Part shown: piece by piece, positions 265 through 60,870 of the stretch
Layout: the number at the start of each line of letters is the position of its first letter
Position numbering within the stretch: position 1 is the first letter of the stretch
The notes under the pieces: generated by a model
Seen by the model: the letters and a program-made list of their open reading frames with translations, nothing else
Database searches by the model: none
Told to the model about the DNA's origin: nothing
NCBI RefSeq assembly: GCF_021134715.1
Contig: NC_060021.1
Coordinates: forward strand, 1,488,001-1,552,000
Origin: Daphnia pulex
Taxonomy: Eukaryota > Arthropoda > Branchiopoda > Diplostraca > Daphniidae
Direction of reading: 5' to 3'
DNA length: 64,000 nucleotides
Translations under genes and position numbers: made by a program

Positions 265-3200
265 CTACCTCCTACCTCCTCGACCCCTTCCACGCCCCCT
301 ACCTCTTCCTCCCCTTCCGCCTTCATCTCCACCTCCTGCACCTCCTCTTCTTCGTGCTTTCGCTTCTTTGATAGCTTCAGCTCGACTCAACAGTCGCGAC
401 ACGGACTGCCGGGCTTCCTTCTGCTTCGACATCTAATAAACAAACACGCACGCAAATGACAAACGTTGTGAATGAGTTGACGTCAAACGAAAGAAATGGA
501 AAGCAATGAAACTTACTTTTCTTTCTGCTTCGGCTTGGACTACAGTACGATGAGCAGCCAGTCGTTCCACAGCCTCGACGTGGAGTCGATCTTTCCTGTC
601 GTCGTAGCGGGTCTTGAGCATGGCCATCAGTTTGGCCACCTTCTGTTCTCGAGGCTCCAGCACCACAGCGGGACGCTGAGCTCTAACGGCTTCGATGGTA
701 CCTGGTGCATGGTCGGCCTTCTTGACTTTGGGCCGATTAATGTAAGGCAGTGCACTTTGAAGGGCCCGTGGAATCACCAGCGGTTGTTTGACGTGAGGTT
801 TCCGTTCAATCGGCGTGTACATGCTGTCCGTGTTCGCCTTTGAAATTAGAAAGAAGAACGAGAAAGAATTAGAGAGAAATAAAAAAGAATTATCTGTTGA
901 TCCTGTTTCGAAATACCTCGTTCTTGATGTTTCGTTCACGTTTGATTTGGCCCAACGTCTTCATTCCTAACCAGGTATTCTTGGCGTCGAGAGGTAAGAG
1001 CAGAGAGGTTACGGGTGTGTAAAATTCCGGAACATCCACGCGGAACCAAGTCCTCACAAAAACGATGTCTACGTACATCCACAGAGTGTGTTATTTAGTT
1101 AGGTCAAACTTTAAAATACAAATTTCGGCATATTTACCGCTAAGTTTGATTTTGTCTTCAAAAGTGGCACGGAACGATCCTTCCGGACTGCGGATGGCTT
1201 TTTTAATCTGACCACGGATGCCAGAAACGGTGCGGATCGATGCTCCCTCGAATTTGGCCACTTCCAGGGTCGACGAGAACATGCCCTCGATAAAGGCCGT
1301 TTTGCGGTAAATCTGGAACGGCGTACCGACTAATTTGAGTTTCTTGACAATCTGAGTCGACTTGTCCAAATCGAGAATCGTGCCCGTCGCTGATATCCTA
1401 AATCCAGACTATGCCAAAGCAAGAAAAACAAAAATCAAAATTAAAAAATTACTTTGGAACAAATTTCAATTAATTAAGGGATTTGTACCTGAACTTGAGA
1501 GACGGACTGAACGGCCAGCAGACCTGTGCCTTGAGGTGTCAATGGACCCCAAAACGAAGCTGTACAGTGCATATGCTCTGGTGTGTATTTGAGCTGTCTG
1601 TGACGTCCATTGTGATCGTGGATCGAGTAAAGCGGAATGGTTTGAAATCGGCGCCAGCCCAACGAGAGGATCAGCGGATCCCTCGTTTTTAGGATACGTC
1701 GCTGCCACCTATGTTTCTTCAGACGAGCCTGTTTGTAGAAATAAGAAATTAAAATAAATCTCTACAACAGCACATATACGGAATAAAACCGAAATAAAAT
1801 ATTACCTGAACAAATCCAATGTTCTCCTCGCCGGGCAGCAAAGCTCCAACGATCAAGGGATAGATAGGGTTGAAATTCGTCAACAACTCGCAGGGAACAT
1901 CTGCAACTTCCATCCGGACGTACATTCCTGGTCTGTAGCCTTCGTACTGGATCCGGGTTTCGTCATCCATGCCATCAAACTCACTTTTGTTGAGCTGGGC
2001 CTGTTGATCCATCTCTTCTTTGAGATCGTCGTAATAAGTTTTGGTTTTCTTGGACCCGCCTTCGTCATACTCGGAGTTGAATTGTTCCTTGAGTTTCCGT
2101 TTCTTTTCAATCAGCCTTTTGCGTTCGTCTTCTGGCGACTCATCTTTATTCTCGGCACCGCTTTTCTTGTCCGCTTGGGACACCTCTCCAGTTTCCAGGT
2201 CTTCGAAATCGCCTTCAGAGTTCATGTCGTCGAGATCATCCATTGCCAGCAGTTCCTCAGCGTCTTCATTCTCTTTCCATTTGCCCGTCACGAAGCAATC
2301 GCGGATACTGTCGAGCACGTCCGCCTTGGTCCAGTCCTGCATCTTGTCAACGTGGAAATGGGAACTATCCACGTGATCCTTGGTGCTCAGAATGTTTTGA
2401 GTCGAACGTCGTTTGTCTGACGCAACCTTGAACAAACCGCCCAGCCGCCCACCTTCCTCTTCGTCGTCAACATCCGATTCATCGCTACTCTTCTCTTCTG
2501 TGATATCCGGACCGTAAACTAATTTTCGCAGATTTCCCTTTCCTGTCTGTCGTTGGTAAAAAGCTTCGGAAGCCTTTTGTGCCAGGTTGTCTTTCCATTT
2601 CAAGTCGATGTCGTCGTCTTCCGATTCGTCTTCCTCCTCTTCCATATCCACTTCCATCGACTCTTGTGCTTCGCGTGATTTCTTGCTAATCGGAATCGGC
2701 TTCTCCAAAGCCTTTAAAGTGGATTTGATTTTTTGGTGGACCTCCATATCCTTGTCGATTGGTTTCTTCTTGGCAGTTTTGGTTTTCTTTCGAGCAGGTT
2801 CTTTAGTTTCATCGACTTCATCTGTGGCGTCGTTGAGATCGTACAAGACGGAGCCTCGTCGAAATTGTCCCTCAACGCCTTCCACCTTTTCTTCAATAAT
2901 GGTCTGCATTTCATCGTCTTCGTCACTTTCTCCATCGCTCTCGTCCTCGTCGAGAAAGTCGGCAAGCTGTCGGCGTAATTTGGCTGTAGCGCTTAATTTG
3001 TCATTGCTAGTCACGTTGGGATTGACGGACGGCAGTTCGTCATCTTCTTCTTCAGAGACTTCGTAGACCAACTTTTCTTCTTTGTCCTAGAATTACAAAT
3101 GAAATAAATTTCTCTACTTCAAGCTCGACAAAATGAAATCACTATTACCTTAGAATTGATGGGGTGTAATTTAATTTCCTCAAAATCTTCTTCATCGTCC

Positions 3201-4960
3201 AGTTGATCCTCTTCATCCTCCTCGTCGTCATCATCGTCACCAATTTCATCGTCGAGATTGTCATTAAAAACAGCCCTTCTTCTCGTCCTCCCAGAAACTT
3301 CATCATGAACGATTTCCTCGCGAGGTTTACCATCCGCCACTTCACTGCGAAATAAAAGTACGCGTTAATTATATGAATATCTTTTAAATTCCATTCAATC
3401 CAACTTACTCGTCGTCCGGTAGCTCATCGTCTAGTAGTTCCTCGTCTTCGTCATCCGCCCGAGTCAGAGTAGGTCCTTCTACTCTTGATTCAGACATCTG
3501 TACATCCAGCGTCCTTTGCAACTTCATCAGCGACGAGATCATCTCTGATTTAGGATTTGTAGGGTCATCCTTTTTGGAGTGCGAGTGACTGCCGCCAAGC
3601 TCAATGTAGATGGAATCCTTGTCGTAGATGATACCGCCCACCCCAGACATGGGGGCATAGATCAGCTTCTCTTTTTCGACAAGCGAACGTTTTTTCAATT
3701 TATCCGGTAAAGGGCAAGGATCAGGAAGAAAAGAAACATCTTTAAGGCGGAAATCACCACAGCCTGGGATGTGGATGGGGCAGTGATTTCTCAAGTGGAC
3801 ACCACGCACGAAACCGTAAAGGCAGATGTCCCGATTGCATTTGGGATTCTCATGTAATCGACTGGGAGGTGTCATGTCTTCCAATCGGTCCACCAAGACG
3901 TAAGGATGAGTCGATCTCCACAACAGAGGTCGGAATTTCATGACAGAGATAAAGCGGCCGAGGTTCTTGATCTCGTTTTTAGGGTAGGTTCCGTGGAGTT
4001 GACCAGAAAGGTAAAACAATTTCGCTCCCTGGTAAACTTCTGTCCAAAATCTGTGCTTCAAAACTTTTTTAGTTTTTTTCAGTTGTTTGTTATTCTTGAA
4101 CATGTCCAGATGAGTCAGAACGCCCATTACTCGGGGGAATCCATGCACCTGGTAATCGTTCGAGATCATAAATTTTGAACACAAGGAGTATGCTTCAGTA
4201 AATCTTACCTGACAGATGTTGAGAAATTCAAAAATTTCCATTTCGAAGCCAAACGAAGCATCAGTCAAAAGCAGAACAAGGTCAGCCACTTTCGCGATGT
4301 CTATCATTGAGTTGATGTCGTTATTGCATTCCATAAAAGTCACCCTTCGTTTTTTACCTAGATTTTTCAAGAAAAATGATAAGTTTTAGATTCAATATTG
4401 TAAAAATTAACGGATAACGCATTACCCGTGACGATGGTTACGGGCCCCTGTATGGATGTGATATTCTGTCGTGTAAAGTTTTTTATTAGAGCTTGGAGTA
4501 GAGTGGTTTTTCCAACTTTGGGTGGGCCAACAATGGCTACCATGATCGGTGGGGGTTCTAATGGAGTCCTGTCTACTAATGGAATATGCTGCTTTTTCGT
4601 TTCCAAATCTTGGGCCCTGAAAAAAATTGAAATTGTTAACAACGAGGGAACAAAAATGTTGTTGGCTCTGAAAGAGACTTCATGCAAGCTTTGATTGATT
4701 TTTGATGAACCAAGCGATTTACCTGTGAAAACGTTTCTGAGCCTTGGCTACTGACTGGATAGCAAAAGCTTTGGGGTTGCGCTGACGAGCATCCATTTCT
4801 TGAACGTGCGGATCCTTGACTTTTTTCTTGTCCGCTTTGCGCCCTACAAATTTTTACCATCGTTAAATGTTTTAATCTTCAAATACTGTATTCAGAAAAG
4901 TTATGTACCAGCACGGCGTTCCCGGTGAGCCTTTTTCTTGTCCTCAACATGATCCTCCAT
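265..4960 (-). CDS. BMS1: BMS1 ribosome biogenesis GTPase, 12 exons, about 1293 aa
   Basis: Nucleolar GTPase that drives early 40S pre-ribosome (SSU processome) assembly. Exons in transcript order: 4909-4960, 4723-4843, 4426-4616, 4209-4357, 3409-4148, 3149-3344, 1806-3086, 1489-1728, 1138-1408, 917-1068, 517-837, 265-432. All junction phases agree and sum to 1294 codons, close to the roughly 1280 usual for the family. The P-loop GPPKVGKT falls at residues 88-95, preceded by [29 protein letters not shown] and KHRFWTEVY follow in the GTPase half, then long acidic Asp/Glu stretches. The family C-terminal block [20 protein letters not shown] is encoded by exon 9. The start at 4960 opens a basic N-terminus ([16 protein letters not shown]) as in other BMS1 proteins. 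The last exon encodes a Gly/Arg-rich (RGG) tail instead of the usual basic end. Assignment is secure; exact ends of exons 9 and 12 are less so. Confidence 0.93.
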
Positions 4961-10117: not shown

Positions 10118-11695
10118 TTACTTAGGTCCTTTTTTTTGTTGAATTGACGAGACGTTGACTTCGGCCAACAGTTCCGCGTAAGCCGATTGGCAGCTACTCA
10201 GTCTCCCGATGATGGTCATCTTACCGCTGATGCCGTCAGAGGCCAACGTACGATTGATTCTTACGAAGTGCTCTCTTCCAATTTCGTACAGCCTGTAGTT
10301 TTTAATTCTTTTAAACAGTTGAAAGTTTGAACATTCCGTAATGACTGTTAATCCGCGTAAGATGTCTTCGGCGGCCGCTTTGCGCATCTCCTCACTGTTT
10401 CCGGAAATCATCAGTTTATAGGTGCCGTCGACTGCTCCTTTGATACTCACGACGATTTGGTATTCTGTTTCAATGCGATGGATGTTTGATCCTCCGCTTC
10501 CAACAATCCGTCCATAATCGCCACCTTGGATGTTTTTGAGTAAAAGTCTGTTGCCAGGGAGAGATTTTTCCTCAATGGGACTGGACACGACGACGAGTTC
10601 TTGTTCCGTCTTTACTGGGCCACTGATGATGGTGCGGGAGTCGTCCTGGGCGGGTTTCCTCACCTTGTCCTCCGTTTTTTGAGTGGGTTGTAGATCCACC
10701 GTGCTGGGCTCGTTCGTTGATTTCAAGGCATCGCCATACGTGACGGTAGATCCATCCGGGTTGACCACATAGCCACTTATCGGTTTGTTCTTGTACCTTA
10801 TGTCGCTGACTGGGAAATAGACTTGCGGTTTCAAAGCGACTTGCTGATGGACGGGTGATTTGGTTCGCTCATCCCGGGCTGGGATATAAAATGAATGACG
10901 ACGGTTCTTATTGCCTTCCATAATCTTCATGTCCAGTTCGAAGCCATAGTCTTCATCATCTTTGGTCACGTGCTGCTCAAGTTCTTCAGTTCCACATCCA
11001 ACTTCTTTCGTCATTGACTGGCCGGTCTGTGTGGAGTTATTTGCTACCTCAACAACACATCCGCATCCAACTTCCATTGTTAACGGCTTTACGGTTTGGT
11101 GGGTGGCCGTAAATTCGTTACGCAATTGCGTCATCTGCTGTTCGTATGACTTTGTAACCTTTTCAATTGCATCAACGGTCGTGATCTTATTCTGCTCAAG
11201 TTGTTCTAGGAGTTGTTTCTTTTCTGCCGTAAGACAAGACAGGTGGCGTTGAAGTTTGTCGTTAGTTGTGGTCACTTCCGACAGCGATTTTCTCACGGAA
11301 ATGAGTTCGATTTTATTCTGGTCTGGTAATAGTTGTAGTGATAGGGCCAGTTGCTGTTGTTGTTCCAACTCGTACCTTGTTGTCTTCAATTCGGCCGACA
11401 ATTTTGCAACTTCGGCAGCGCAATCCTCCCCGTCTTGGTTCTCTGGTATGGACGGCAGAGACGTGTTGCAATTGAAGCGATTCAGCCTGACAGATGGTGT
11501 TTTCAGTACTGAACGATATCGGGTTCCAGGTTTCATTTTGGTAGTTTGATCCTGGTTGGCCAATTTGGCATCTGGTAATTCGGTAACGGACTTGATGTCC
11601 GGGGTCGGGTAATTAGACTCATCTTTTTCACTTTCGTGAAAAAGAATCATGGTCCACACATATACGAAAAAGCAAACTAGAAGATATTCCATCAT
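10118..11695 (-). CDS. Membrane-anchored coiled-coil/KH-domain protein, 525 aa, intronless
   Basis: Single uninterrupted frame. Residues 4-20 (LLVCFFVYVWTMILF) form one hydrophobic segment that could be a signal anchor. About residues 80-190 are Gln/Glu/Leu/Lys-rich and predicted coiled coil. Two similar Cys-containing motifs follow (TMEVGCGC and TKEVGCGTEE). The C-terminal KH fold spans about residues 381-450, with a canonical loop GRIVGSGGSNIHRIE (GxxG as GSGG), so single-stranded RNA or DNA binding is expected. The final about 60 residues are basic. I do not recognise a named family for the whole. The lack of introns beside intron-rich neighbours suggests a retrocopy origin or a young gene. 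The start at 11695 is chosen because it precedes the hydrophobic segment; an alternative start is the Met two codons on. Confidence 0.8.
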   Translation of the reverse strand: MMEYLLVCFFVYVWTMILFHESEKDESNYPTPDIKSVTELPDAKLANQDQTTKMKPGTRYRSVLKTPSVRLNRFNCNTSLPSIPENQDGEDCAAEVAKLSAELKTTRYELEQQQQLALSLQLLPDQNKIELISVRKSLSEVTTTNDKLQRHLSCLTAEKKQLLEQLEQNKITTVDAIEKVTKSYEQQMTQLRNEFTATHQTVKPLTMEVGCGCVVEVANNSTQTGQSMTKEVGCGTEELEQHVTKDDEDYGFELDMKIMEGNKNRRHSFYIPARDERTKSPVHQQVALKPQVYFPVSDIRYKNKPISGYVVNPDGSTVTYGDALKSTNEPSTVDLQPTQKTEDKVRKPAQDDSRTIISGPVKTEQELVVVSSPIEEKSLPGNRLLLKNIQGGDYGRIVGSGGSNIHRIETEYQIVVSIKGAVDGTYKLMISGNSEEMRKAAAEDILRGLTVITECSNFQLFKRIKNYRLYEIGREHFVRINRTLASDGISGKMTIIGRLSSCQSAYAELLAEVNVSSIQQKKGPK

Positions 11696-31914: not shown

Positions 31915-33050
31915 CATTTGTTGTTTTGTTTTACATCGTTTCATCTGTGCGACTGCTAAATGATCTTGTCATTCTTTTGAATATTGCTACAGAATTTAGA
32001 AGAAATAATGGAAAAGAGTGATCGCAGTTGTCTTCACATCAGCCCATGAGACATCAGATGTTTTGGCGTCCAGAACTTTTCTCCTGAACATTGTACATAT
32101 CCATTTTCTAAAAAAATGCTGTTTTGACATCAATTTGACCATAAAAATAAAGACTGTAATTGGTACCTTGTGCAATCCATACAACTGCTCTCTTATAGAA
32201 ATAAAGAACCAAAGCGCATCTAAAATGACAACATTTTATTCTTCTTCTTATTTTCTCAAAAAGAAACCAAGTGGATTTTTATGCTATTTGATGCAAGACA
32301 ATATTCTTTTTGTATTTCGGTTCAATATATATGTCTCGCCTGCTTGTCACAAGCTAATTCTCTATGCTGTTATTCTGAGTTTGAATATTCGATCAAGAAA
32401 ACGTGTCTGCATGTATCTCATGAAAAAAGGTGCGCCCATCAGTCGAGGTGCCAATTAATTCTTAGGTTATTATCTATTTCACATGTATTGTTTCATGCTG
32501 AATTTTTGAATGCATCACTGCATGTAGTTGTATAAGACGTCTCTCTCTTTCGTTACAAAATAAAAACAAACAAAAAAAGAGATGGACAGCAGCCGGAGGA
32601 AATTCAGATAGTCAATCCATTGTATATATATAAATAGAGGCCAGCCTAAAATTGTTATGTAGGTCATCAATAGGTATAATGCCCTATACAATCACACCCA
32701 TACACCAAGGGGGAAAACGGAATTCGCTCCAGGAATAAAAAGACAAAATCATTTTTTAAAGAAGAAACATAAATCAGAAATAAAAAGTATCAAAAATAAG
32801 TCTCCAATCGTTTGCGCTTGTTAGAATTTTCATTTTCTTTTTTTGTTTTGTCTCGTATTTTATATCATTGGGATATCAAAGTTATTTACATTGTTTTGTT
32901 TTTTATTCAAAGATTAGTACACAAAAATTTATATCTGGTTGTGTTTTTTTCACACTCGAGCACAGCTCGACTTTCTTCCGAGTCATTTTTTGAAAAAATT
33001 TAAAATTCAATTATTTTGAATTTCGCGGGGGTTTATTAAATTCAATTGTT

Positions 33051-36000
33051 TCACCAAGCCTCGGCGTTGCGGGTCTGTCGTTTGCTCCTGGGCACGGTGG
33101 GTGAGAGCTGGGGCGTTTGAACGACGTCGGACGGATTGATTCCGACGCGCGGGAAACCCCTGGGCACGACGTCCGACTTGTCGGAGCCACCTTTGCTGGG
33201 CTTGGGCGGCGAGGCCAGCGTCGAGTCGGAATCTTTCGGGTAGGTGCCGGTGGTGCGGCGGCGATGGAGGACCAGGCCGATGATGAGCCCGCAAACCAAG
33301 ATGCTGGCCAGCACCGACAGAACGACAATAATGGCCAGGTAAAGGGCCTCGATGTCCAGGGCCTGGGCCAGAATTTCTCGCGTTTCCAGGCTGCGGTCCA
33401 GCAGGTCGCTGCTCTCCTCTTTAGTGGCGGCCACTCTGAGATGAGTCGAGTCGAGTTTGTGGTAGAATTTCGACGACGTGCTGTCGGCCGGCATCGTGTG
33501 CCCGTCCATTTCCAGCGCCAAGTGGCCCGATTTCACCTGTCACCCAAATGATTATTGCCAATCATATTAATCAAATCATTTTGAAATGAATTAGAAAAGT
33601 TGGTACCATATCCTCGAGGTGGGAGGCGACGTCGATCTTGTTGTCGCCGACCAGCGTAAAGGTCAGGACCGTTCCGTCCTGCCGGGATTTGACCTGGAGG
33701 GTCGACTCCATGGTGCGGGCCGACAGGCCGTTGAGGATCTCGCCCACCTGCTGACGCACTTCCTTCTCCATTTGCTCCTGGGCGTGGTCCATGGCCGGGA
33801 ATCCCAGGGTCATCGCCACGGCCATCACTGGCACCAGACCTGATCGGACGGACCAAATTTTTTAAAAATTTCGTCATAATTTGGTTGTTGTTGCTGGACA
33901 CTTACGGCAGGTCTGCTCTCCGCGGAGAAACTGGGTGGTGTTGGCCACCTGATTTCCGGCTTCGTCGACGCACCAGCAGCTGACTTGGCCGTTGTTGGAC
34001 TTGGCCGGCAGGCACTGGATCGGCTGGAACCGGCCCAGGTGGTCGCATTCCGGAATCGATTCGCCGCTTCCGCCGCCAGCGCCTTTCTTCAGTTGCGCCT
34101 GCCGCATCTTCTGGCACCGGGTGTAGTGCGGATGGGCCAGCGATTTACCGCGCTGCTGGGCAGGAGATGGACCCACTGTCGTTATGGTTGTTGTCGTCGT
34201 TGTTGTTGGGGCTTCCGTCGTTGTTGTTGTGGTGGTTGTTGGGCTGGTGGTGGTAGTTGTTGTCGTGGTTGTTGTTGTCGTCGACTCTTTGACTTCCGGA
34301 TGGACGTCGTGGAAGGCGTGGCGGGGCTCGGCTTGGAGGACGGCCGGCTCGACTTGAGCCAGGCACTTGACGGCCTGTCCGTCTGCGTCGACAAAGACGG
34401 CCTGACAGGTGCAGGGATCGACGGAGCAAGCAGCTTCCGGGTGGTTGGCGCACGTCTGTCCGGCGCAGGCCTCGTTACGGCTGCACGACTTGATCTCGCC
34501 CAGCATCGGCGACTGCTGCGGGAAGAGGACCAAGTCCGGGCAGCGGCTGGCGCACTGCTGGTAACTGTGAAAGTTGTTGGCGTTGCCTCCGCATCCGCCG
34601 AACGAGAATTTCTCGCACAGCTGAGTCTCCGGATTGTAAGCCCAGCGAGGGAAATTCGCCCGGCACATGCCCGGCTCCTTGGGCAATTCACACACGTTCA
34701 CTATAAAAATAAAACAAAAATTTTTATGAAATAAAAAAACTTGTGAATTAAAGTTAAATGAATTAAAGTTAATTGAATTAAAGTTAAATGAATTTTCTAC
34801 CTGGTTTCTCGCAGTGTTGGCTGCACTCCTGGACGGACTCGAAATTATTTTCGTTGCCTTCGCATCCGCCGTAAATGAATTCCTCGCAGGATTGGGAAGA
34901 AATGTTGTAAAAGTAGCGGGGAAAAAGTGCCCGGCAGTGGCCCGTCTCGGCCGGCTGGCTGCAGCGATCGGTGCACTCGAGCCGCTGGCCCTGGCCGTCG
35001 ATGAAGGCCACCTTGCAGTCGTCGCAAGGATCGGCCACGCAGATGGCGTCCGGGTGGAAGGGGCAGCGGGCGTGGAGGCACTCGTCCCGGCAGACGGTTG
35101 GCTGGACGCTCGGGTCGGGACAGATGGGACCCAGGGCCCGTTGCTCCAGGACGGTCCCGTTGGGCGAGCAGCGGACCGATCCGCGGGTGAAGGAGTCGTC
35201 GATGGGCTGGCCGGTCGTGTCCACGCACCAACTGAACTCGCCCTGGCTCTGCTCCCGGGCATAGTCGCCCTTCAGGGTGCAGACGGGCGGAGAGATGGAC
35301 ATCATCAACGGACCGGAACTGTTTTCTATTTTATTTTAGAAAAAATTAATTTAATTTGATTAAATTTTAATTAAATTTTAAATGCAATTTGATAAAATTT
35401 TTATTTTTTTTCGAATTATTTAAGATTTTTTAAAAGTAAAATTTAATTCGATTAACTTTAAATTTAATTCAATTAACTTTAAATTAATTTGAAATTAAAC
35501 GGACCTTCGGGGGAGGTGCAGGTGGAACTGCATCCGTTGGAGCAGCACTTGGCCCGGCCGGAACAGTCCGAGTCGGACGAGCATTCAATGATGGCCTTGG
35601 TGTCTGCTGGGCAGCCGAACGGGTGAGCCGCTGCTGGGCAGGCGCCCGGTTTGGGCAGGAGTGGCGTCGGTAGGAGAACCGGGTGGGTGCAGGTGGAGCC
35701 GCACTCGCCCGGGCAGCAGCGGGTCGGTCCGGCGCAGTCGGCGTCAGAGACGCACTGGTCGGCGCAGGCCGCCCCTCCGGCGAATTGGGCCAGCACCCGC
35801 AGGAAAGTGCGGGAGCGGACTGGCGGGCAGAATCCAGGTTTGATGGCGTCACGCAGAGCGGGCACAGGTCGTTGCTGGACAGTCTGATCGTCGTCCAGGC
35901 TTTCGAATCCGTTCTTGACTTCGTCCAGTAAACCTTCGTCCACCGGACGCTGGGCCAGCAGCTTTCCGGTTCTGGAATCCAGCGGAGTCGTATCCTCCAC

Positions 36001-38222
36001 GTCGGAAGTTTCGGTGGCCATTTCCAGGTCCAACTCTTCCAGTTGAACTTTCTTGAGCATTTCCGCAATCAATTCCGACGGTCCAGCTTCTTTCATCGTG
36101 TCCAGCAAGGCCGTTTCGGTCGATTGTTCCTTCTCTTCCAGCTGGCGCCTGAGGCGACTGCGGCTCCGGTGCGGAATATCCGTTCATGTCGTAGTGGTAG
36201 GACGGGCTGGACGAAGTGGAAACCACCAGTGGCTGGGCGTTCCACGGCCCGCCCTGTCTGGCCCAGGTGTCGGAATTCAAAACGACTTGCACTTCCCTCT
36301 GGCACTTGCTGAGTCCGGCTTCACAGTCTACCTTCCGGCCGGAAGCCGGATCGTAAAAAGAGTGACGGTATCCGCCGCAAGGATCGACCCGGCAGACGGC
36401 CTTGGGGTTGGCCAGGCAGATTTTGCTCTCGCAAATCGACTTGTTGCAGACGGGGACCACGGCCTTGGGGTCGTCGCAGATGGGCGGGTCGATCGAGCGC
36501 TGACGGGCCTGCCGGACACCGCAAGTGGGCGATCCTCGTGTCAAAGATCCTGGACAACAAAAATTTTAAATTAAAATTTCACATTTTTCTCTTGAATGGG
36601 CAAAAATTTGACTGGGCAAAAAATTTAACTGGGCAGAAAATTGACTGGACGGATAAAAAAATAATAAAAAACATTTTTCAACTGGACGGACCTTTGATGT
36701 GTTCGCCGTCCTTGTCGACACACCAGCAGATGCCCACCTCTTCCAGGCACTGGACGGGTTCCCAGTCACCATTGGCTTTGTTGCACTTGGGCGTGAAAAC
36801 GACTTTCTTGAACTTCTCGGCCATTTTGAGGTTCTTCTCCCTCAGCTCCTCGCAGGTGGACAGGGACGGGCAGACGGCCTTGCACTCCCGTTCGGAATCA
36901 AAATTGTTCATGTTGCCGGAACAGCCCGTGTAGCGGAAGGCCTCGCAGCGGTTGCGCTTCTCGTTGAAACTGTAGCGCAGGACGGACGCCTTGCACGAGC
37001 CCAGCAGCTTCTCCTGGAAACAAACGTCCCTGGGCTTGGGGCAGCAGACGGAAAATTCGCCCAGGGGCGACAGGTGACACTTGTGCGTCGACGGGCAGCT
37101 GGAGCCCATCGGTCCGCAGTTGACGGTCGTGTTACTGCCGGACTGGCCGTCCCTCAGCGGCTGGCCGTGAGTGCAGGGATTGTCCAGCCTGGGCAGGCAG
37201 ACGGGCAGAGGTGGGCAAGGAGCCCGGATGCAGTTGACCTTACCACTCGACACTCTTCGGCCGGTGATCGGCACTCTACACCGTCACAGGGGTCCCGGCA
37301 AGCGCAGACTCGGCAGCCAGACGTGTGCAGCTGATAGCCATGAGCCGAGCAATCCAATTCAGGACATTCGCTCAGAGCCGGGCAGCTTCTCGGGGTGTGA
37401 CATTGAGGTTGGAGTCCGGGTGGAACCCGGGTGCCGGCCAGCTCCCGCCCGTCGGCCGAAACGCAACAACAGGCCCGGGTGACTGGATCGCACTGGACGG
37501 CCTCGAAGGCTCCGTCCTCTGGCCGGCAACGTGGGATGAACAGCCGATTGGCCGGCAGTCCGTTCTCCCTGGCCTTGTACTTCATGATCATCTGCATGTG
37601 CTGGCAGGCCGTCTTGATGAGCGGCTCGACGCATTGGGTTCCGCAACCGTTGGAGCAGCACTTGAGCTGGCCGTCACAGTCCTCGTCGGCCGAGCACTCG
37701 CTGTCGCAGCTGTCCACCGAGATGGGCACCAGGTAGGGACACTGGCCGGCCTTGATGACGTGCTGGATCGGGCAGCAGGTCCCGTCTGGCCCGTTGTTTT
37801 CGCTGTAGCAGGAAAACCCTGCCGGGCAGCTCAGCGCCCGGCTGCGCGGATTGCACTGGATGGGCAGATTGTCGACAGGGTTGAGGAACGGCTCGCTAGC
37901 CGGGCAGCTGGCCGTCCATTCTTCTATTTCTTCCTCCTGGACGTCGGTATCTTCTCGGTCAAGCTGCTGGACGGCCGTGCAGAATGGTAGAGCCAGGCAG
38001 AAGGGGGTCTCTGGGCATGGGGAAACGACCAGCTGGCATTGCTGGCCTTCCGGGCAGTTGGTGACGTCGCAGGGGTTGCGGCACTCGCACAACGGGCAGT
38101 TGGTGGCGTTGTCCGTCGCAAACCCGTAGTCGCAGCCCAGCCGGCACAGCAGCCCCGGCCATTCGCTCTCCGTGTCGTGACGCAATTTCAAACAGGTCGA
38201 GGCCGACCGCTGCTGGACCGAA
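33051..38222 (-). pseudogene. Truncated copy 2 of the multidomain inhibitor gene
   Basis: Retains the six last exons of the intact gene: about 36691-38222 (part of exon 8), 35499-36549, 34801-35318, 33906-34700, 33607-33839, 33051-33536. It lacks exons 1-7, the signal peptide and the promoter. A one-base loss near 37245 shifts frame within an antistasin-like domain (CRVVR.. instead of [10 protein letters not shown]). A deletion of about 55 bases near 36160 shifts frame after YSAPE. The three Kunitz modules, Thr-rich linker and transmembrane exon remain readable. Homology ends at about 38222, where the sequence becomes unrelated. Very similar to the 41-50 kb gene, so duplicated recently. Confidence 0.85.
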
Positions 38223-40420: not shown

Positions 40421-41026
40421 TGCCAATTCATTCTTAGGTTATTATCTATTTCACATGTATTGTTTCATGCTGAATTTTTGAATGCATCACCGCATGTAGT
40501 TGTATAAGACGTCTCTCTCTTTCGTTACAAAATAAAAACAAACAAAAAAAGAGATGAACAGCAGCCGGAGGAAATTCAGATATTCAATCCATTGTATATA
40601 TATAAATAGAGGCCAGCCTAAAATTGTTATATAGGTCATCAATAGGTATAATGCCCTATACAATCACACCCATACACCAAGGGGGGAAAACGGAATTCGC
40701 TCCGGGAATAAAAAGACAAAATCATTTTTTAAAGAAGAAACATAAATCAGAAATAAAAAGTATCAAAAATAAGAAGTCTCCAATCGTTTGCGCTTGTTAG
40801 AATTTTCATTTTCTTTTTTTGTTTTGTTTCGTATTTTATATCATTGGGATATCAAAGTTATTTACATTGTTTTGTTTTTTATTCAAAGATTAGTACACAA
40901 AAATTTATATCTGGTGGTGTTTTTTTCACTCTCGAGCACAGCTCGACTTTCTTCCGAGTCATTTTTTGAAAAAAATTTTAAATTCAATTTTTTGAATTTC
41001 GCGGGGGTTTATTAAATTCAATTGTT
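40421..41026. other. 3' flank of copy D and of the full inhibitor gene
   Basis: Duplicated spacer equivalent to 23395-23999; see that entry. No gene seen. Confidence 0.55.
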
Positions 41027-44000
41027 TCACCAAGCCTCAGCGTTGCGGGTCTGTCGTTTGCTCCTGGGCACGGTGGGTGAGAGCTGGGGCGTTTGGACGA
41101 CGTCGGACGGATTGATTCCGACGCGCGGGAAACCCCTGGGCACGACGTCCGACTTGTCGGAGCCGCCTTTGCTGGGCTTGGGTGGCGAGGCCAGCGTCGA
41201 GCCGGAATCTTTCGGGTAGGTGCCAGTGGTGCGGCGGCGATGGAGGACCAGTCCGATGATGAGCCCGCAGACCAAGATACTGGCGAGCACCGACAAAACG
41301 ACAATAATGGCCAGGTAAGGGGCCTCGATGTCCAGGGCCTGGGCCAGAATTTCCCGCGTTTCCATGCTGCGGTCCTGCAGGTCGCTGCTCTCCTCTTTAG
41401 TGGCGGCCACTCTGAGATGAGTCGAGTCGAGTTTGTGGTAGAATTTCGACGACGTGCTGTCGGCCGGCATCGTGTGCCCGTCCATTTCCAGCGCCAAGTG
41501 GCCCGATTTCACCTGTCACCCAAATGATTATTGCCAATCATATTAATCAAATCATTTTGAAATGAATTAGAAAAGTTGGTACCATATCCTCGAGGTGGGA
41601 GGCGACGTCGATCTTGTTGTCGCCGACCAGCGTAAAGGTCAGGACCGTTCCGTCCTGCCGGGATTTGACCTGGAGGGTCGACTCCATGGTGCGGGCCGAC
41701 AGGCCGTTGAGGATCTCGCCCACCTGCTGACGCACTTCCTTCTCCATTTGCTCCTGGGCGTGGTCCATGGCCGGGAATCCCAGGGTCATCGCCACGGCCA
41801 TGACTGGCACCAGACCTGATCGGACGGACAAAATTTTTTTAAAAATTTCGTCATAATTTGGTTGTTGTTGCTGGACACTTACGGCAGGTCTGCTCTCCGC
41901 GGAGAAACTGGGTGGTGTTGGCCACCTGATTTCCGGCTTCATCGACGCACCAGCAGCTGACTTGGCCGTTGTTGGACTTGGCCGGCAGGCACTGGATAGG
42001 CTGGAACCGGCCCAGGTGGTCGCATTCCGGAATCAATTCGCCGCTCTGGCCGCCACCGCCTTTCTTCAGTTGCGCCTGCCGCATCTTCTGGCACCGGGTG
42101 TAGTGCGGATGGGCCAGCGATTTACCGCGCTGCTGGGCAGGAGATGGACCCACTGTCGTTGTGGTTGTTGTCGTCGTTGTTGTTGGGGCTTCCGTCGTTG
42201 TTGTTGTGGTGGTTGTTGGGCTGGTGGTAGTAGTTGTTGTCGTGGTTGTTGTTGTTGTTGTCGACTCTTTGACTTCCGGCTGGACGTCGTGGAAGGCGTG
42301 GCGGGGCTCGGCTTGGAGGACGGCCGGCTCGACTTGAGCCAGGCACTTGACGGCCTGTCCGTCTGCGTCGACAAAGACGGCCTGACAGGTGCAGGGATCG
42401 ACGGAGCAAGCAGCTTCCGGGTGGTTGGCGCACGTCTGTCCGGCGCAGGCCTCGTTACGGCTGCACGACTTGATCTCGCCCAGCATCGGCGACTGCTGCG
42501 GGCAGAGGACCAAGTCCGGGCAGCGGCTGGCGCACTGCTGGTAACTGTGAAAGTTGTTGGCGTTGCCTCCGCATCCGCCGAACGAGAATTTCTCGCACAG
42601 CTGAGTCTCCGGATTGTAAGCCCAGCGAGGGAAATTCGCCCGGCACATGCCCGGCTCCTTGGGCAATTCACACACGTTCACTATAAAAATAAAACAAAAA
42701 TTTTTATGAAATAAAAAAACTTGTGAATTAAAGTTAAATGAACTAAAGTTAATTGAATTAAAGTTAAATGAATTAAAGTTAATTGAATTAAAGTTAAATG
42801 AATTTTCTACCTGGTTTCTCGCAGTGTTGGCTGCACTCCTGGACGGACTCGAAATTATTTTCGTTGCCTTCGCATCCGCCGTAAATGAATTCCTCGCAGG
42901 ATCGGGACGAAATGTTGTAAAAGTAGCGGGGAAAAAGTGCCCGGCAGTGGCCCGTCTCGGCCGGCTGGCTGCAGCGATCGGTGCACTCGAGCCGCTGGCC
43001 CTGGCCGTCGATGAAGGCCACCTTGCAGTCGTCGCAAGGATCGGCCACGCAGATGGCGTCCGGGTGGAACGGGCATCGGGCGTGGAGGCACTCGTCCCGG
43101 CAGACGGTTGGCTGGACGCTCGGGTCGGGACAGATGGGACCCAGGGCCCGTTGCTCCAGGACGGTCCCGTTGGGCGAACAGCGGACCGATCCGCGGGTGA
43201 AAGAGTCGTCGATGGGCTGCCCGGTCGTGTCCACGCACCAACTGAACTCGCCCTGGCTCTGCTCCCGAGCATAGTCACCTTTCAGGGTGCAGACGGGCGG
43301 AGAGATGGACATCATCAACGGGCCGGAACTGTTTTCTGTTTTGTTAATTTAAAAAAAATTCCATTTAATAGGATTAAATTTAATTCGATTAACTTTAAAT
43401 AATTTCCAATTAAACGGACCTTCGGGGGAGGTGCAGGTGGAACTGCATCCGTTGGAGCAGCACTTGGCCCGGCCGGAGCAATCTGAGTCGGAAGAGCATT
43501 CAATGACGGCCTTGGTGTCTTCCGGGCAGCCGAACGGATGAGCCGCTGCTGGGCAGGCGCCCGGTTTGGGCAGGAGTGGCGTCGGCAGGAGGACCGGGTG
43601 GGTGCAGGTGGAGCCGCACTCGCCCGGGCAGCAACGGGTCGGTCCGGCGCAATCGGCGTCAGAGACGCACTGGTCGGCGCAGGCCGCCCCTCCGGCGAAC
43701 TGGGCCAGCACCCGCAGAAAAGTGCGGGAGCGGACGGGCGGGCAGAAACCGGGTTTGATGGCGTCGCGCAGAGCGGGCACAGGTCGTTGCTGGACAGTCT
43801 GATCGTCGTCCAGGCTCTGGAATCCGTTCTTAACTTCGTCCAGCAAACCTTCGTCCACCGGACGCCGGGCCAGCAGCTTTCCGGTTCTGGAATCCAGCGG
43901 AGTCGTATCCTCCACATCGGAAGTTTCGGTGGCCATTTCCAGGTCCAACTCTTCCAGTTTAACTTCCTTGAGCATTTCCGCAATCAATTCCGACGGTCCA

Positions 44001-47000
44001 GCTTCCTTCATCATCGTGTCCAGCAAGGCCGTCTCGGTCGATTGTTCCTTCTCTTCCAGCTGACGCCTGAGGCGACTGCTGTAGACGGTGACGGATGAGA
44101 GCAGAGCGTCCGGCAGGACTTCGGCGTCCTCTTCCGGTGCGGAATATCCGTTCATGTCGTAGTGGTAGGACGGGCTGGACGAAGTGGAAACCACCAGCGG
44201 CTGGGCGTTCCACGGCCCGCCCTGTCTGGCCCAGGTGTCGGAATTCAAAACGACTTGCACTTCTCTCTGGCACTTGCTGAGTCCGGCTTCACAGTCCATC
44301 TTCCGGCCGGAAGCCTGATCGTAAAAGGAGTGACGGCATCCGCCGCAAGGATCGACCCGGCAGACGGCCTTGGGGTTGGCCAGGCAGATTTTACTCTCGC
44401 AAATCGACTTGTTGCAGACGTGGACCACGGCCTTGGGGTCGTCGCAGATGGGTGGGTCGATCGAGCGCTGACGGGCCTGCCGGACACCACAAGTGGGCGA
44501 TCCTCGTGTCAGAGATCCTGGACAACAAAAATTTAAAATTAAAATTTCACATTTTTCTCTTGACTGGACGGAAAATTGACTGGGCAGAAAATTTGACTGG
44601 GCAGAAAATTTGACTGGGCAGAAAATTGACTGGGCAGAAAATTTGACTGGGCAGAAAATTGATTGGACGGACAGAAAAATGATAAAAAATATTTTTCAAC
44701 TGGACGGACCTTTGATGTGTTCGCCGTCCTTGTCGACACACCAGCAGATGCCCACCTCTTCCAGGCACTGGACGGGCTCCCAGTCGCCATTGGCCTTGTT
44801 GCATTTGGGCGTGAAAACGACTTTCTTGAACTTCTCGGCCATTTTGAGATTCTTCTCCCTCAGCTCCTCGCAGGTGGACAGGGACGGGCAGACGGCCTTG
44901 CACTCCCGTTCGGAATCAAAGTTGTTCATGTTGCCGGAACAGCCCGTGTAGCGGAAGGCCTCGCAGCGGTTGCGCTTCTCGTTGAAACTGTAGCGCAGGA
45001 CGGACGCCTTGCACGAGCCCAGCAACTTCTCCTGGAAACAAACGTCCCTGGGCTTGGGGCAGCAGACGGAAAATTCGCCCAGCGGCGACAGGTGACACTT
45101 GTGGGTCGACGGGCAGCTGGAGCCCATGGGGCCGCAGTTGACGGTCGTGTTGCTGCCGGACTGGCCGTCTCTCAGTGGCTGGCCGTGAGTGCAGGGATTG
45201 TCCAGCCTGGGCAGGCAGACGGGCAGAGGTGGGCAAGGGGCCCGGATGCAGTTGACCTGGACCACTCGACACTCTTCGGCAGGCGATCGGCATTCTACAC
45301 CATCACAAGGGTCCCGGCAAGCGCAGACTGGGCAGCCGGACGTGTCCAGCTGATAGCCATGAGCCGAGCAATCCAATTCAGGACATTCGCTCAGAGCCGG
45401 GCAGCTTCTCGGGGTGTGACATTGAGGTTGGAGTCCGGGTGGAACCCGGGTGCCGGCCAGTTCCCGCCCGTCGGCAGAAACGCAACAACAGGCCCGGGTG
45501 ACTGGATCGCACTGGACGGCCTCGAAGGCTCCGTCCTCTGGCCGGCAACGTGGGATGAACAGCCGATTGGCCGGCAGTCCGTTCTCCCTGGCCTTGTACT
45601 TCATGATCATCTGCATGTGCTGGCAGGCCGTCTTGATGAGCGGCTCGACGCATTGGGTTCCGCAACCGTTGGAGCAGCACTTGAGCTGGCCGTCGCAGTC
45701 CTCGTCGGCCGAGCACTCGCTGTCGCAGCTGTCCACCGAGATGGGCACCAGATAAGGGCACTGGCCGGCCTTGATGACGTGCTGGATCGGGCAGCAGTTC
45801 CCGTCCGGCCCGTTGTTTTCGCTGTAGCAGGAAAATCCTGCCGGGCAGCTCAGCGCCCGGCTGCGCGGATTGCACTGGATGGGCAGATTGTCGACAGGGT
45901 TGAGGAACGGCTCGCCAGCCGGGCAGCTGGCCGTCCATTCTTCGATTTCTTCTTCCTGGACGTTGGTGTCTTCTCGGTTGAGCTGCTGGACGGCCGTGCA
46001 GAATGGTAGAGCCGGGCAGAAGGGGGTCTCTGGGCAAGGGGAAACGACCAGCTGGCATTGCTGGCCGTCCGGGCAGTTGGTGACGTCGCAGGGGTTGCGG
46101 CACTCGCACAACGGGCAGTTGGTGGCGTTGTCCGTCGCGAACCCGTAGTCGCAGCCCAGCCGGCACAGCAGCCCCGGGCATTCGCTCTCCGTGTCGTGAC
46201 GCAATTTCAAACAGGTCGAGGCCGACCGCTGCTGGACCGAGGCCACACCCCGAGTGCCGGGCAACTCGACGCCAAACTCGTCCACGCACCAGCACTGGCC
46301 GTCCTTGTCGCATTGCTCCTCCTCAAATTCGCCCTGGGCAAATTAAAATTAAAAATTAAAATTTACATTTAATTGAATGCAATTTCCATTTAATTCAATT
46401 AACCCTTTATCGACGTGAGCCAATAAAAGTTTCTAACTTCTAGACGCCACGTAAACAAGGGTTAAAAGGGGATTCCCTATAGGACTTTGTCCCGACAGGC
46501 AATAGGGAGATCCAGAGGATCTCGCCACGGAAGTTCCTACGGCCGAAAAAGGGTTAAATTTTAATTAATTTACCTGCGGGGTGCAGCGCGGGTTTTTCAA
46601 AATCAAATTGTAGCCGGGCTCGGCCGGTTTGCGCCCGTCGGCAATTTCCTTCATCATTTCGCAGATGGACGGGAGACGGCCGTCCTCTTCCGCCGGAATT
46701 TGTTTAATAGAGCCGGGCGGAGCGGCCGGAGCTGTCGGGCAGCAGAATGAGGCGTTGTTGGGCAGGCTGTAGGTGCAGTGGAAGCCGGACGGGCAGGTGA
46801 ATTTGGAGCCGACGGTACAGCTGACGGCCTCGTCGGTCGCCTCGTTGCTCAGGTGCCGGCCAAAGGCGCAGGGTGGGACGAAAGTGGGCCGGCACTGCGG
46901 GCTCATCGGGCACCTTTTAGCGCTAGCCGGGCAGGACGGATCGCGTTTCATGAGGCATTGCTCACCTGCCGGGCAGGCCAGCTGCTCGCAGGGGTTGTCA

Positions 47001-57220: not shown

Positions 57221-60200
57221 TCACTGCGTCTGCTCGGCTTGGCCAGGCCGTGGGGTCGAAAAACACAATTTAGTCGTATAGGGCCATTTGACATCTAAAA
57301 CGAACAAACCATTTCATTAAAATAGATTAAAAGAATATAATTTAAATTAATTACGTACTGGCGCCGGAAAGGGGAATGTGGTTGCAGATGACGAGGGCTT
57401 CGACGGCCTCCTGGAGCGTGCTAAACTCCAAATGGCCGGACGAACTTTTTTCACCTGTCAAAAAATAATTAAAAAACAAAATTAATAAAAACGAACAAGC
57501 AACGAATAAATTTATGATCGTACTCTTGTTCTGCAGGAGCCGGATATCGGCGGGGAAAGCCGTTCCGTTCTCTTCGAAAACTTTGCGCAGGTCCTCCTCG
57601 GTGAGGCCGGGCGGAGTGTTGTAGAAGTGGAGGACTTTGCAAGGCGGCTGCAGTCGATTTTTCGAGGCCATGTCAGAGTTGAGGAAGCGATTGTTCTTGC
57701 TGTTGACGAAACTCTTGAAGGAAGGCGTCCCGTCCGGCAGGTCGTACGGCATCGACACGTCCGCCAAAAAGGCCTGTTTGGAATAACTGCAAATAAACCC
57801 CCCAAAAAATAAATAAATAAACTCAAAGTCATCGATTAAATAAAGAAATAAATGGATGACTTCATACTTGACGTTCATTTTCGTGTTGAAGAAATCCAGG
57901 CCGTTGAGGTAAAAAATGGCCCGGTCGACCGAAGGGGCATCGCCCATCTGAACCATAGCCGAGCCTTCTTTGGTTTTGAGAAATTTTATCTACAAAATTT
58001 TGGTCAAAAATGAATCAAATTTGATATTTACAAAGAATCCATTTAAATTTAAAATTTACTTTAAAGACGTTTCCGTAGAGACAGAGGAGATTAAAGAGCC
58101 GGTCGGCGTTCATCTTCTCCATGTTGAGACCGTAGACCATGAGGACGGCGCCTTCTTGGGGGCCGTCAGTGGCGTCCACGACACCCCGCGAGCCCCGGCT
58201 CTGGACGGGCGGACCGCCGGGTTGACCGCCAAACCTCTGGCCGGGAGCTCTGCCGCCTCCAATGGACCGTGACGGCTCACCACCGAACCGCCCGCCAGCC
58301 CCGCCGGCACTTTCCTCGTAGTCGAACCTCGGCGTGGCGCCGTCACGCCCCTGCCGGACACCGAATCCGTTCTCGTGTCGTTCCGCCGTCCGTCCATACT
58401 CGGGTGATCCCCCTATTAACATTAATATCAATAATAAACGCCCCTGAATTTATTTGGATTTAAATGATTTAAAACATTCTTACGGAATCCCTGAGGTCCG
58501 CCAGCAGGTTCCGGTAATAACGGTGCTGGCCTCTGTCTTTGTGAATCTGCAACATCACGAATGTAATTAGAACGTTACTAAATAAATAAACATCATCATC
58601 GGGTGGCACCTTCCCACCCAAACCCAAATAAATAAATAAATCAAAATGACTGGGCAACCATTTTAGTGGGCGGACATTTTGAAAAAAAAAAAAATACCTG
58701 CTCCCGGTGTAGGTGTCGTGTAATCCCACGTCTCTGAATCGTTTTTGTGGACATTCAACCTGGTTGGCTAATTTCCAAAAATAGAAAAAAATTAATGAAA
58801 CAGACAACAAAAAATATTAAAAATTCCAAAAATTAAATTTTTTTTTTCAAAAACATCCACGCCATCCGCTAAACGTGCGGCGGAGGTTTCGTGAACTGGG
58901 ACTGAGAGACGGAAGCGACCAAGATAACGTGAGGGGGAGAGAAAAAAGAAAGAAGTTTAGACGACAGAGACGGATGTAAATGGGGTCAGGTATAAGCTAA
59001 AAATAGCCCGTCTCCATAGCATTTTCGTGATGCTCTCCCGCTCAATCCTCCCTCCACACCCATTGCACAGAGAGAGAGAGACGAAGAATGTCAACATTTC
59101 AATAAGGTGGCCCGGGTAGAAAATAATAAGAAGAAAAGTTTAAAAAAGGAAAAATAAACGCCAAAGAATTTTTCAGAGAGAGGGGAGAGGTAGAGACGAT
59201 AATGCTTTGCTGGCTGCCGGCCAGCAAAGATGGAAAAAAATAGTCGACAGTGGATGAGTGACGACCTGATATCTAAGCGAATATCTTTCACAGGATCTAG
59301 CAGGAAGAACAAAAAAAAAAAAAAAAATAAATTTTAAAATGCAAGTGGAAATTCTAACCTTAGCGTATTCGATTTTCAAGGTGCAGCAGCCGGAATAAAT
59401 GTCAGCTCCATCTAGACCTTCTTTGGCAGCCCTTGCCATATCCACATTGGCAAACGTGCAAATTCATTAGTCGAGTTAAGGACATTTTCCAAACTTAAAA
59501 AAAATTAAAAAATCTAAAAAAATTAATTCCGGATTGAAAAGGATATTCGACCATGGCTTGGACGCCGTGTTTCTTGAAGATGACGATGCGTAGGACTTCT
59601 CCAAAGGCCTGGGTGATGGTGTGCAGCACATCCTAGTAGAGAAAGAGAAAGACAAGACGGAAACAAAAAATATATAAGACAGTAGACGAAGGTTTTTCTT
59701 TCTAGTTTTGTTTTTAGATTGGCGTGTTTCGTCAAAAAAGAATAACATTTGTGTCGGCATGTTTCATGTCTGTCAACACACTGGCCCGTGTTATATATAT
59801 AGTATGACTTATTTCTCTGCTCAACAGGTATATGATTTTTAAATTAGATTGAAGAAATTAGATTCTCTCTGGCAGAGATGGAATATAGTGGACAGTGTTT
59901 GGTTGGTGGGGAGTCTTTTTTGGCTATCGTTTTAACATTTGTGTTTGTTGTTTGGGTTTTTTGTTTTGTTACATGTGATGGTCAACTTACCACTGTGATT
60001 GGGTAGACCGGGTTCACGATGGTGAACAGCAAGATGTGGTTCTCGGGAAAGTCCCTATTGTATAGAACAAGTTGCAACACCGTAATCAAGTGTGACATGT
60101 CTGACGAAACAATCAAATGTTTTCTGCGTGTCCCCCACAAGAATGCCAAAGCTCATTCTTCCTGGCCGTTAATGCAATGATCCATGTTTTGCGAATAAAA

Positions 60201-60870
60201 GAAAGTGTCAATGTATACAGAGAGAGGAAAAATGCTTTCTGACGGTGGTGGTGGTAATGGTGCTGGTTGTGTCGATGGTTGTGGTGACAAGCTGAGTGGC
60301 TCAAAGTTATACATTACGACAGATATGGAAAACAGCAACTGGCTCTTACTTCTTTTTGAATCCTCCGTCCTCCTCCTTGAACTCCCAGCCACCTCCACGC
60401 TCTCCACCATACCAGTTCTGTGGCTCAACAAGAGAGAGAAAAGAAACAGAAACAAAAATTAGAAATATAAGCACATGAGCTGAATCCTTGTCAAAGCTCA
60501 GCACACATTAGACAAGAGAGAGACAGAAATGGGCAGCTGGATTGTTACATGGGGCAACATTTCTGGATGGACCGCACAGCTGCTAGTTGGACGTCAGTCG
60601 TGTGCTAATCCCGGCCTGTCATGCGAGGTTTCGCCGACTTGTCACAACTGATCGATTTCAAACTTTTTCGTGGTGGGCAGCAGCAGCAGCAGCAGAGCAG
60701 CAGCAGCAGCTTATCGAGCCCCAAACTTTCGTCTGTGTCGTCTATAGGAAGAAGGAGGGGGGCAGGCAGGCAATCAACCACACTCACAAACTTACACGCT
60801 GGGCATTATCCTGCTGCTGATCAGTCCTGGGTCTTTTGGGAGCCCGTCCGTTCGTCCCGTGAGCCGCCAT
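57221..60870 (-). CDS. sm: hnRNP L / smooth RNA-binding protein, 12 exons, about 476 aa
   Basis: Exons: 60796-60870, 60350-60417, 59991-60054, 59547-59632, 59359-59455, 58698-58767, 58484-58546, 58060-58412, 57868-57989, 57524-57786, 57359-57454, 57221-57294; phases all agree. The start encodes MAAHGTNGRAPKRPRTDQQQ, like hnRNP L. RRM2 (residues about 65-140): HILLFTIVNPVYPITVDVLH, GVQAMVEF, GADIYSGCCTLKIEYAK. The conserved linker TRLNVHKNDSETWDYTTP follows, then a Gly/Arg/Pro region. RRM3 (from about 263): AVLMVYGLNMEKMNADRLFN. RRM4 (from about 382): KVLHFYNTPPGLTEEDLRKV, ending PYTTKLCFSTPRP. It binds CA-rich RNA and regulates splicing. RRM1 is not found. The intron at 59456-59546 is AT-AC (U12 type). 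Confidence 0.9.
59456..59546 (-). other. U12-type AT-AC intron in hnRNP L
   Basis: On the coding strand the 91-base intron begins ATATCCTTTT, has a TCCTTAAC branch-site match about 20 bases from its end (59475-59482), and ends TTTGCAC. Removing it joins AUG GUC GA to G UUU GCC, giving MVEFANVDMARAAKE, the expected hnRNP L sequence. No GT-AG alternative restores the frame. Confidence 0.88.
60670..60714. repeat. CAG repeat in hnRNP L intron 1
   Basis: An interrupted (CAG)n run of about 12 units on the plus strand, within the first intron of the hnRNP L gene. Confidence 0.85.

What the first reader, a model, noticed from the sequence alone, without database searches (positions are those of the whole stretch)
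59456..59546. AT-AC (U12) intron in the hnRNP L gene
Seen: coding-strand ATATCCTTTT donor, TCCTTAAC branch-site match, AC acceptor and exact restoration of the conserved reading frame. Known: this is the classic signature of introns removed by the minor spliceosome, which are rare in arthropods. Inference: this splicing regulator depends on the minor spliceosome for its own mRNA, a possible rate-limiting or feedback step.
Basis: partly seen in the sequence, partly recalled or inferred. Interest (0 to 1): 0.75.

Follow-up and report, generated by a model that had tools for sequence, protein, structure and literature searches.

The report
Minor-spliceosome intron in hnRNP L gene
A gene for an RNA-splicing regulator in this arthropod genome carries one intron of the rare kind that the minor spliceosome removes; the intron looks real and typical, but nothing in the sequence shows that the gene uses it as a feedback switch.

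Summary
Minus strand 59546-59456 is a 91-nt intron in an hnRNP L family gene, with a U12-type donor (ATATCCTTTT), branch site (TCCTTAAC) and AC acceptor, phase 2. Removing it gives a gapless alignment over 97-98 residues to RRM2 of four solved hnRNP L / hnRNP L-like chains. Between exons 4 and 5 no in-frame, stop-free GT-AG intron of 40 nt or more replaces it. The modelled gene has 12 exons and 476 aa; its other 10 introns are GT-AG. The genome encodes U11, U12, U4atac and U6atac; U11, U12 and U6atac can pair with the intron. A second AT-AC intron of the same build lies in an eIF2A gene. It is an ordinary member of a known intron class, and human HNRPLL is already listed with a U12-type intron affecting an RRM (PMC3564746). 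The proposed feedback or rate-limiting role is not shown. Retention would bring a stop codon within the intron, and skipping exons 4+5 would remove 61 RRM2-region residues in frame. Both are possible ways for the minor spliceosome to affect hnRNP L output; no transcript data were available.

The parts
59456..59546 (-). U12-type AT-AC intron 4 of the hnRNP L gene, 91 nt, phase 2
   Evidence: Splice signals and frame restoration; snRNA pairing
59537..59546 (-). 5' splice site ATATCCTTTT
   Evidence: Read directly; predicted duplex with this genome's U11 5' end and U6atac
59475..59482 (-). Branch site TCCTTAAC; branch A taken to be 59476
   Evidence: Motif read directly; predicted duplex with U12 GAGTAAGGA. 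Which A is the branch is recalled from the consensus
59456..59457 (-). 3' splice site AC
   Evidence: Read directly
59547..59632 (-). Exon 4 (86 nt), part of RRM2
   Evidence: Gene model, PDB alignment
59359..59455 (-). Exon 5 (97 nt), rest of RRM2; exons 4+5 make 183 nt, phase 0 to phase 0
   Evidence: Gene model; in-frame double skip
57221..60870 (-). hnRNP L coding region as modelled, 12 exons, 476 aa, introns 1-3 and 5-11 GT-AG
   Evidence: no transcript support
59938..59970 (-). 33-nt run of A and C only in intron 3, candidate hnRNP L-type binding site
   Evidence: 0 of 500 dinucleotide shuffles reach this run length, but ACAC/CACA words are hardly enriched (8 against a shuffled mean of 6.0); no functional evidence

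Best explanation
This is a real, most likely constitutive U12-type (minor) AT-AC intron in the hnRNP L gene. U11 and then U6atac recognise ATATCCTTTT, U12 recognises TCCTTAAC (roles recalled from the known pathway), and the minor spliceosome joins exon 4 to exon 5 to make an intact RRM2. The major spliceosome removes the gene's other ten introns. Shown here: the signals, the frame, the lack of an in-frame GT-AG substitute between exons 4 and 5, and the presence of the four minor snRNA genes. Inferred: that it is spliced this way in cells. If minor splicing fails, the expected outcomes are retention with a premature stop, or major-spliceosome skipping of exons 4+5 giving an in-frame protein without 61 residues of the RRM2 region.
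For: Donor, branch and acceptor at the only placement with known intron ends among those that keep the protein. Gapless alignment over 97-98 residues with four hnRNP L / L-like RRM2 chains. Complete 12-exon open frame. U6atac 71.4 bits, U12 100.9, U11 82.1, U4atac two copies at 60.8 and 56.8 bits, all over Rfam cut-offs. Predicted duplexes: donor with U11 -8.0, donor with U6atac -7.2, branch site with U12 -9.1 kcal/mol with one bulged base; the same donor does not pair with a recalled U1 end (+1.2). A PDCD7/U11-59K family match, 26.8 bits alone and 34.7 with its neighbours in the frame against a cut-off of 27. A same-build AT-AC intron in eIF2A whose removal also restores a conserved frame.
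Against: No transcript reads. U11 energy alone does not discriminate: the donors of introns 6 and 10, which are GT-AG, score -7.0 and -7.1 against -6.9 for the AT-AC donor trimmed to the same length. The 20 nt from branch A to acceptor is towards the long end of what is usual (recalled). Conservation of the intron in other species could not be tested: no eukaryotic relatives are held.
Confidence: 0.96

Rival explanations
1. The intron is a regulatory switch: low minor-spliceosome activity lowers hnRNP L through retention and decay, or hnRNP L controls its own exon 4 through the A/C-rich run in intron 3, so the U12 intron is part of a feedback loop like that of SRSF10.
For: With the intron retained, the 17th codon after the split codon is a stop. 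The double skip of exons 4+5 stays in frame. A 33-nt A/C run in intron 3 is not reached in 500 shuffles. Human HNRNPL exon 6a is linked to splicing-coupled decay and hnRNPL/hnRNPLL cross-regulate (passages of PMC6547761); [quoted passage not shown] minor-spliceosome inhibition raises skipping of the exons beside minor introns (passages of PMC8034651).
Against: No A/C-rich site in intron 4 itself, and ACAC/CACA words hardly enriched in intron 3. No poison-exon candidate (YAG...GTRAG, 30-250 nt) in introns 3 or 5. No expression data. Most introns would give a premature stop if retained. In PMC8034651 the aberrant isoforms had premature stops but escaped nonsense-mediated decay, so decay cannot be assumed.
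Confidence: 0.12
2. U2-type AT-AC intron, spliced by the major spliceosome as in SCN4A intron 21.
For: AT-AC ends alone do not decide the class (PMC2831892 passages).
Against: Those sodium-channel introns all have G at +5; here +5 is C within ATATCCTT, and a U12-type branch site is present.
Confidence: 0.02
3. Twintron, as reported for human HNRPLL: a competing GT-AG intron at the same place.
For: PMC3564746 lists HNRPLL with U12 and U2 variants of 537 and 536 aa.
Against: Enumeration from exon 4 to exon 5 (introns of 40 nt or more) finds no in-frame, stop-free GT-AG intron; the 8 GC-AG options all delete conserved RRM2 residues. Out-of-frame options and sites in the flanking introns were not enumerated.
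Confidence: 0.03
4. Chance motif or assembly error.
For: The decamer occurs genome-wide at chance level: 495/449 against reversed-pattern 461/493.
Against: Position forced by protein homology, with a branch site at a fitting distance.
Confidence: 0.01

Closest known systems
U12-type introns, AT-AC subtype (removed by the minor spliceosome with U11, U12, U4atac, U6atac, U5)
   Same: Donor, branch site, acceptor, non-zero phase, one minor intron among major introns
   Different: No difference found in the features tested; base before the branch core is G, not T as in the recalled consensus
Human HNRPLL U12-type intron / twintron (PMC3564746)
   Same: Same gene family, U12-type intron that affects an RRM
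   Different: The human case has a competing U2-type intron; none in frame was found here.
SRSF10 minor-intron regulation (passages of PMC8329584; abstract start of PMC7244321)
   Same: A splicing regulator whose mRNA needs the minor spliceosome
   Different: SRSF10 has a U2-type intron nested in the U12 intron and a truncated mRNA using a polyadenylation signal in exon 3; the 91-nt intron here has no such exon by inspection
D. melanogaster smooth (hnRNP L homologue)
   Same: Three RRMs reported (passage of PMC5694756), as modelled here
   Different: Not among the 19 listed fly U12-type introns

Membership tests
U12-type AT-AC intron | 5' splice site ATATCCTT | tested here: met
   ATATCCTTTT at 59546-59537
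U12-type AT-AC intron | Branch site like TTCCTTRAY (recalled) near the 3' end | tested here: met
   TCCTTAAC, 20 nt from branch A to the junction; preceded by G where the recalled consensus has T
U12-type AT-AC intron | AC acceptor and restored reading frame | tested here: met
U12-type AT-AC intron | Minor spliceosome present in the organism | tested here: met
   U6atac, U12, U11, U4atac over Rfam cut-offs; PDCD7 family over its cut-off only with neighbours in the frame; zf-U11-48K, 2 matches, but it also rings in 1 of 14 control genomes, so not specific
U12-type AT-AC intron | Excision depends on U12/U6atac in cells | not testable with these tools
   Needs RNA-seq with minor snRNA knock-down
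hnRNP L family (Smooth included) | RRM2 and RRM3-4 with hnRNP L as best match | tested here: met
   hnRNP L chains best in PDB: 2mqn 2.7e-59 over 261-468, 2mqm 1.9e-41 over 52-150; best PTBP chain 1.5e-22
Vertebrate-type (four-RRM) hnRNP L | RRM1 before RRM2 | tested here: not met
   No RRM1 found in the window or 20 kb upstream with a recalled RRM1 probe that does find the RRM1 of the PTBP-like gene at E = 1e-4; whole genome not searched for it. Fly Smooth is also reported with three RRMs
Twintron (nested or shifted U2/U12) | Competing U2-type splice pair at the same place | tested here: inconclusive
   No in-frame, stop-free GT-AG pair from exon 4 to exon 5; out-of-frame pairs and flanking introns not enumerated
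Minor-intron feedback gene (SRSF10-like) | Expression responds to its own protein through the minor intron | not testable with these tools
   No expression data

The most novel reading that the evidence does not exclude
Exons 4 and 5 with the U12 intron between them form an in-frame cassette that encodes most of RRM2. The minor spliceosome therefore decides between full hnRNP L and either an mRNA with a premature stop (retention) or an RRM2-less isoform (skipping by the major spliceosome), and hnRNP L itself may bias this through the A/C-rich run in intron 3. Human HNRPLL would then be a second case, making minor-spliceosome control of hnRNP L ancient.
Probability: 0.08. Interest if true: 0.6.

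Novelty: new member of a known kind. Interest (0 to 1): 0.22.

Why it matters
It is a clean, well-supported case of a minor intron in a splicing regulator in an arthropod, a group where such introns are few, and it gives a concrete in-frame exon pair to look for in RNA-seq. On its own it does not change what is known of minor introns.

Tried and rejected
Competing GT-AG splice sites: enumerated in frame from exon 4 to exon 5, none. Poison exon in introns 3 and 5: no candidate under a strict YAG...GTRAG rule, which would miss weak sites. hnRNP L paralogue: of 13 matches in the genome, 12 lie in this gene and 1, C2:1266156-1266281, elsewhere. By its sequence I take that one for a PTBP-like gene (judged by eye against the PTBP1 alignment, no family search). 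A short stretch there (QALIQYPDVVTA, found with a recalled probe at E = 4) reads through the equivalent place without an intron, a weak observation.

Genome sample: of 944 ATATCCTTTT sites I read the 100 listed, on C1 and part of C2, and scanned these 100 for a branch site plus AC within up to 700 nt, so longer introns are missed. 2 of 100 passed. One, L040, is an eIF2A intron that restores a conserved frame. The other, L109, has a weaker branch site, looks like chance and was not followed. The reversed-donor control in the same loci had no sites and tells nothing. One extra stretch fetched (L119) was not used.

Literature: 9 searches. None of them returned a paper that I saw describe this intron; only named Daphnia and none joined Daphnia with hnRNP L. 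The survey PMC10639083 includes Daphnia pulicaria, so the intron may be in its data, which I did not see. Rossbach 2009 is not held.

Full report
What is there. On the minus strand, 59546-59456 is a 91-nt stretch that begins ATATCCTTTT, holds TCCTTAAC at 59482-59475 and ends TTTGCAC. It splits a codon after its second base. Removing it gives ...KKHGVQAMVEFANVDMARAAK..., with no gap over 98 residues against RRM2 of hnRNP L (2mqm) and hnRNP L-like (7evs, 2e5i) and over 97 against 7evr. The gene as I model it reads as 12 exons from 60870 to 57221, 476 aa plus stop, and introns 1-3 and 5-11 are GT-AG. hnRNP L structures are the best PDB matches over RRM2 and over RRM3-4, with PTBP clearly weaker. 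Pfam finds RRM families. The start codon and exon ends rest on sequence alone.

Is it more than chance. Homology fixes where the intron must end. Sliding both ends together by -15 to +15 leaves 3 of 31 placements with the same protein, with ends AT-AC, TA-CG and AT-GT. No in-frame, stop-free GT-AG intron of 40 nt or more exists from exon 4 to exon 5. There are 8 GC-AG options, each of which deletes conserved residues, and 2 AT-AC options from an ATATCCT donor, of which one keeps all of RRM2. The donor decamer occurs at about 3.5e-6 per position (944 hits, my division). TCCTTAAC occurs 2 times in the window on both strands.

The machinery. The window's genome has U6atac (71.4 bits), U12 (100.9), U11 (82.1) and two U4atac copies (60.8, 56.8), all over the Rfam cut-offs; 0 of 14 control genomes ring in each of these four searches. 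PDCD7 (U11-59K) matches at 26.8 bits, and at 34.7 with its neighbours in the frame, against a cut-off of 27. zf-U11-48K has 2 matches but also rings in one control genome. The predicted duplexes fit: donor with U11 -8.0, donor with U6atac -7.2, branch site with U12 -9.1 kcal/mol with one bulge, and no pairing with a recalled U1 end. U11 energy alone is not specific, since two GT-AG donors of this gene score alike.

Context. Of the 100 ATATCCTTTT sites read out of 944, 2 pass a loose branch-plus-AC test. One is an intron in an eIF2A gene (L040) whose removal gives a gapless match to eIF2A of PDB 8dys over 111 residues. So at least one more such intron exists in this genome. For D. melanogaster 19 U12-type introns are listed, none in smooth (PMC2831892 section 8). 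The survey PMC10639083 infers minor-intron loss in the ancestor of Pancrustacea and finds two copepods without conserved minor introns (passages). Human HNRPLL is listed with a U12-type intron and a competing U2-type intron that change an RRM slightly (PMC3564746, parts 1 and 2 of 3 read). Whether it is the same site is untested.

How it most likely works. The minor spliceosome joins exon 4 to exon 5 and completes RRM2. If it fails, retention runs into a TAA inside the intron. Skipping of exon 4 or 5 alone breaks the frame, and would need a GT donor with an AC acceptor or an AT donor with an AG acceptor. Skipping both, exon 3 to exon 6, is in frame and removes 61 residues. Skipping of exons beside minor introns upon minor-spliceosome inhibition is reported, with isoforms that carried premature stops yet escaped nonsense-mediated decay (PMC8034651, passages). 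For this gene both outcomes are predictions.

The feedback claim. It has no direct support. Intron 4 lacks A/C-rich sites. Intron 3 has a 33-nt A/C run not reached in 500 shuffles, one of two runs of 30 or more in the window on both strands, but its ACAC/CACA words are hardly above the shuffled mean (8 against 6.0). A CA-rich motif is stated to bind Smooth (PMC5694756 passage), so the run is a lead. Eleven introns were examined, so one unusual run is not strong evidence.

Organism. The genome is 133.19 Mb in 13 contigs. The window has a cuticle protein domain.

Noticed in passing
57221-60870 (-), and C5 20 kb upstream (L016, L017): The modelled hnRNP L gene lacks a recognisable RRM1: a short N-terminal part of about 48 residues runs straight into RRM2. 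Fly Smooth is also reported with three RRMs.
   Followed up: partly
59938-59970 (-): 33-nt run of only A and C just inside intron 3 of hnRNP L.
   Followed up: partly
33003-38221 and 40980-46240: Tandem duplication at 95.0-96.6% identity (four blastn pieces); frames in it hold Kunitz, thyroglobulin, WAP, antistasin and lustrin domains.
   Followed up: partly
L040 (C1:4159840-4160840), minus strand: A second AT-AC U12-type intron, in an eIF2A gene, with donor ATATCCTTTT and branch site TCCTTAAC.
   Followed up: yes
1749-4370 (-): Two frames with RIBIOP_C and AARP2CN domains, as in ribosome biogenesis proteins of the BMS1/Tsr1 type.
   Followed up: no
10118-11695 (-): 525-aa frame with a KH domain.
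   Followed up: no
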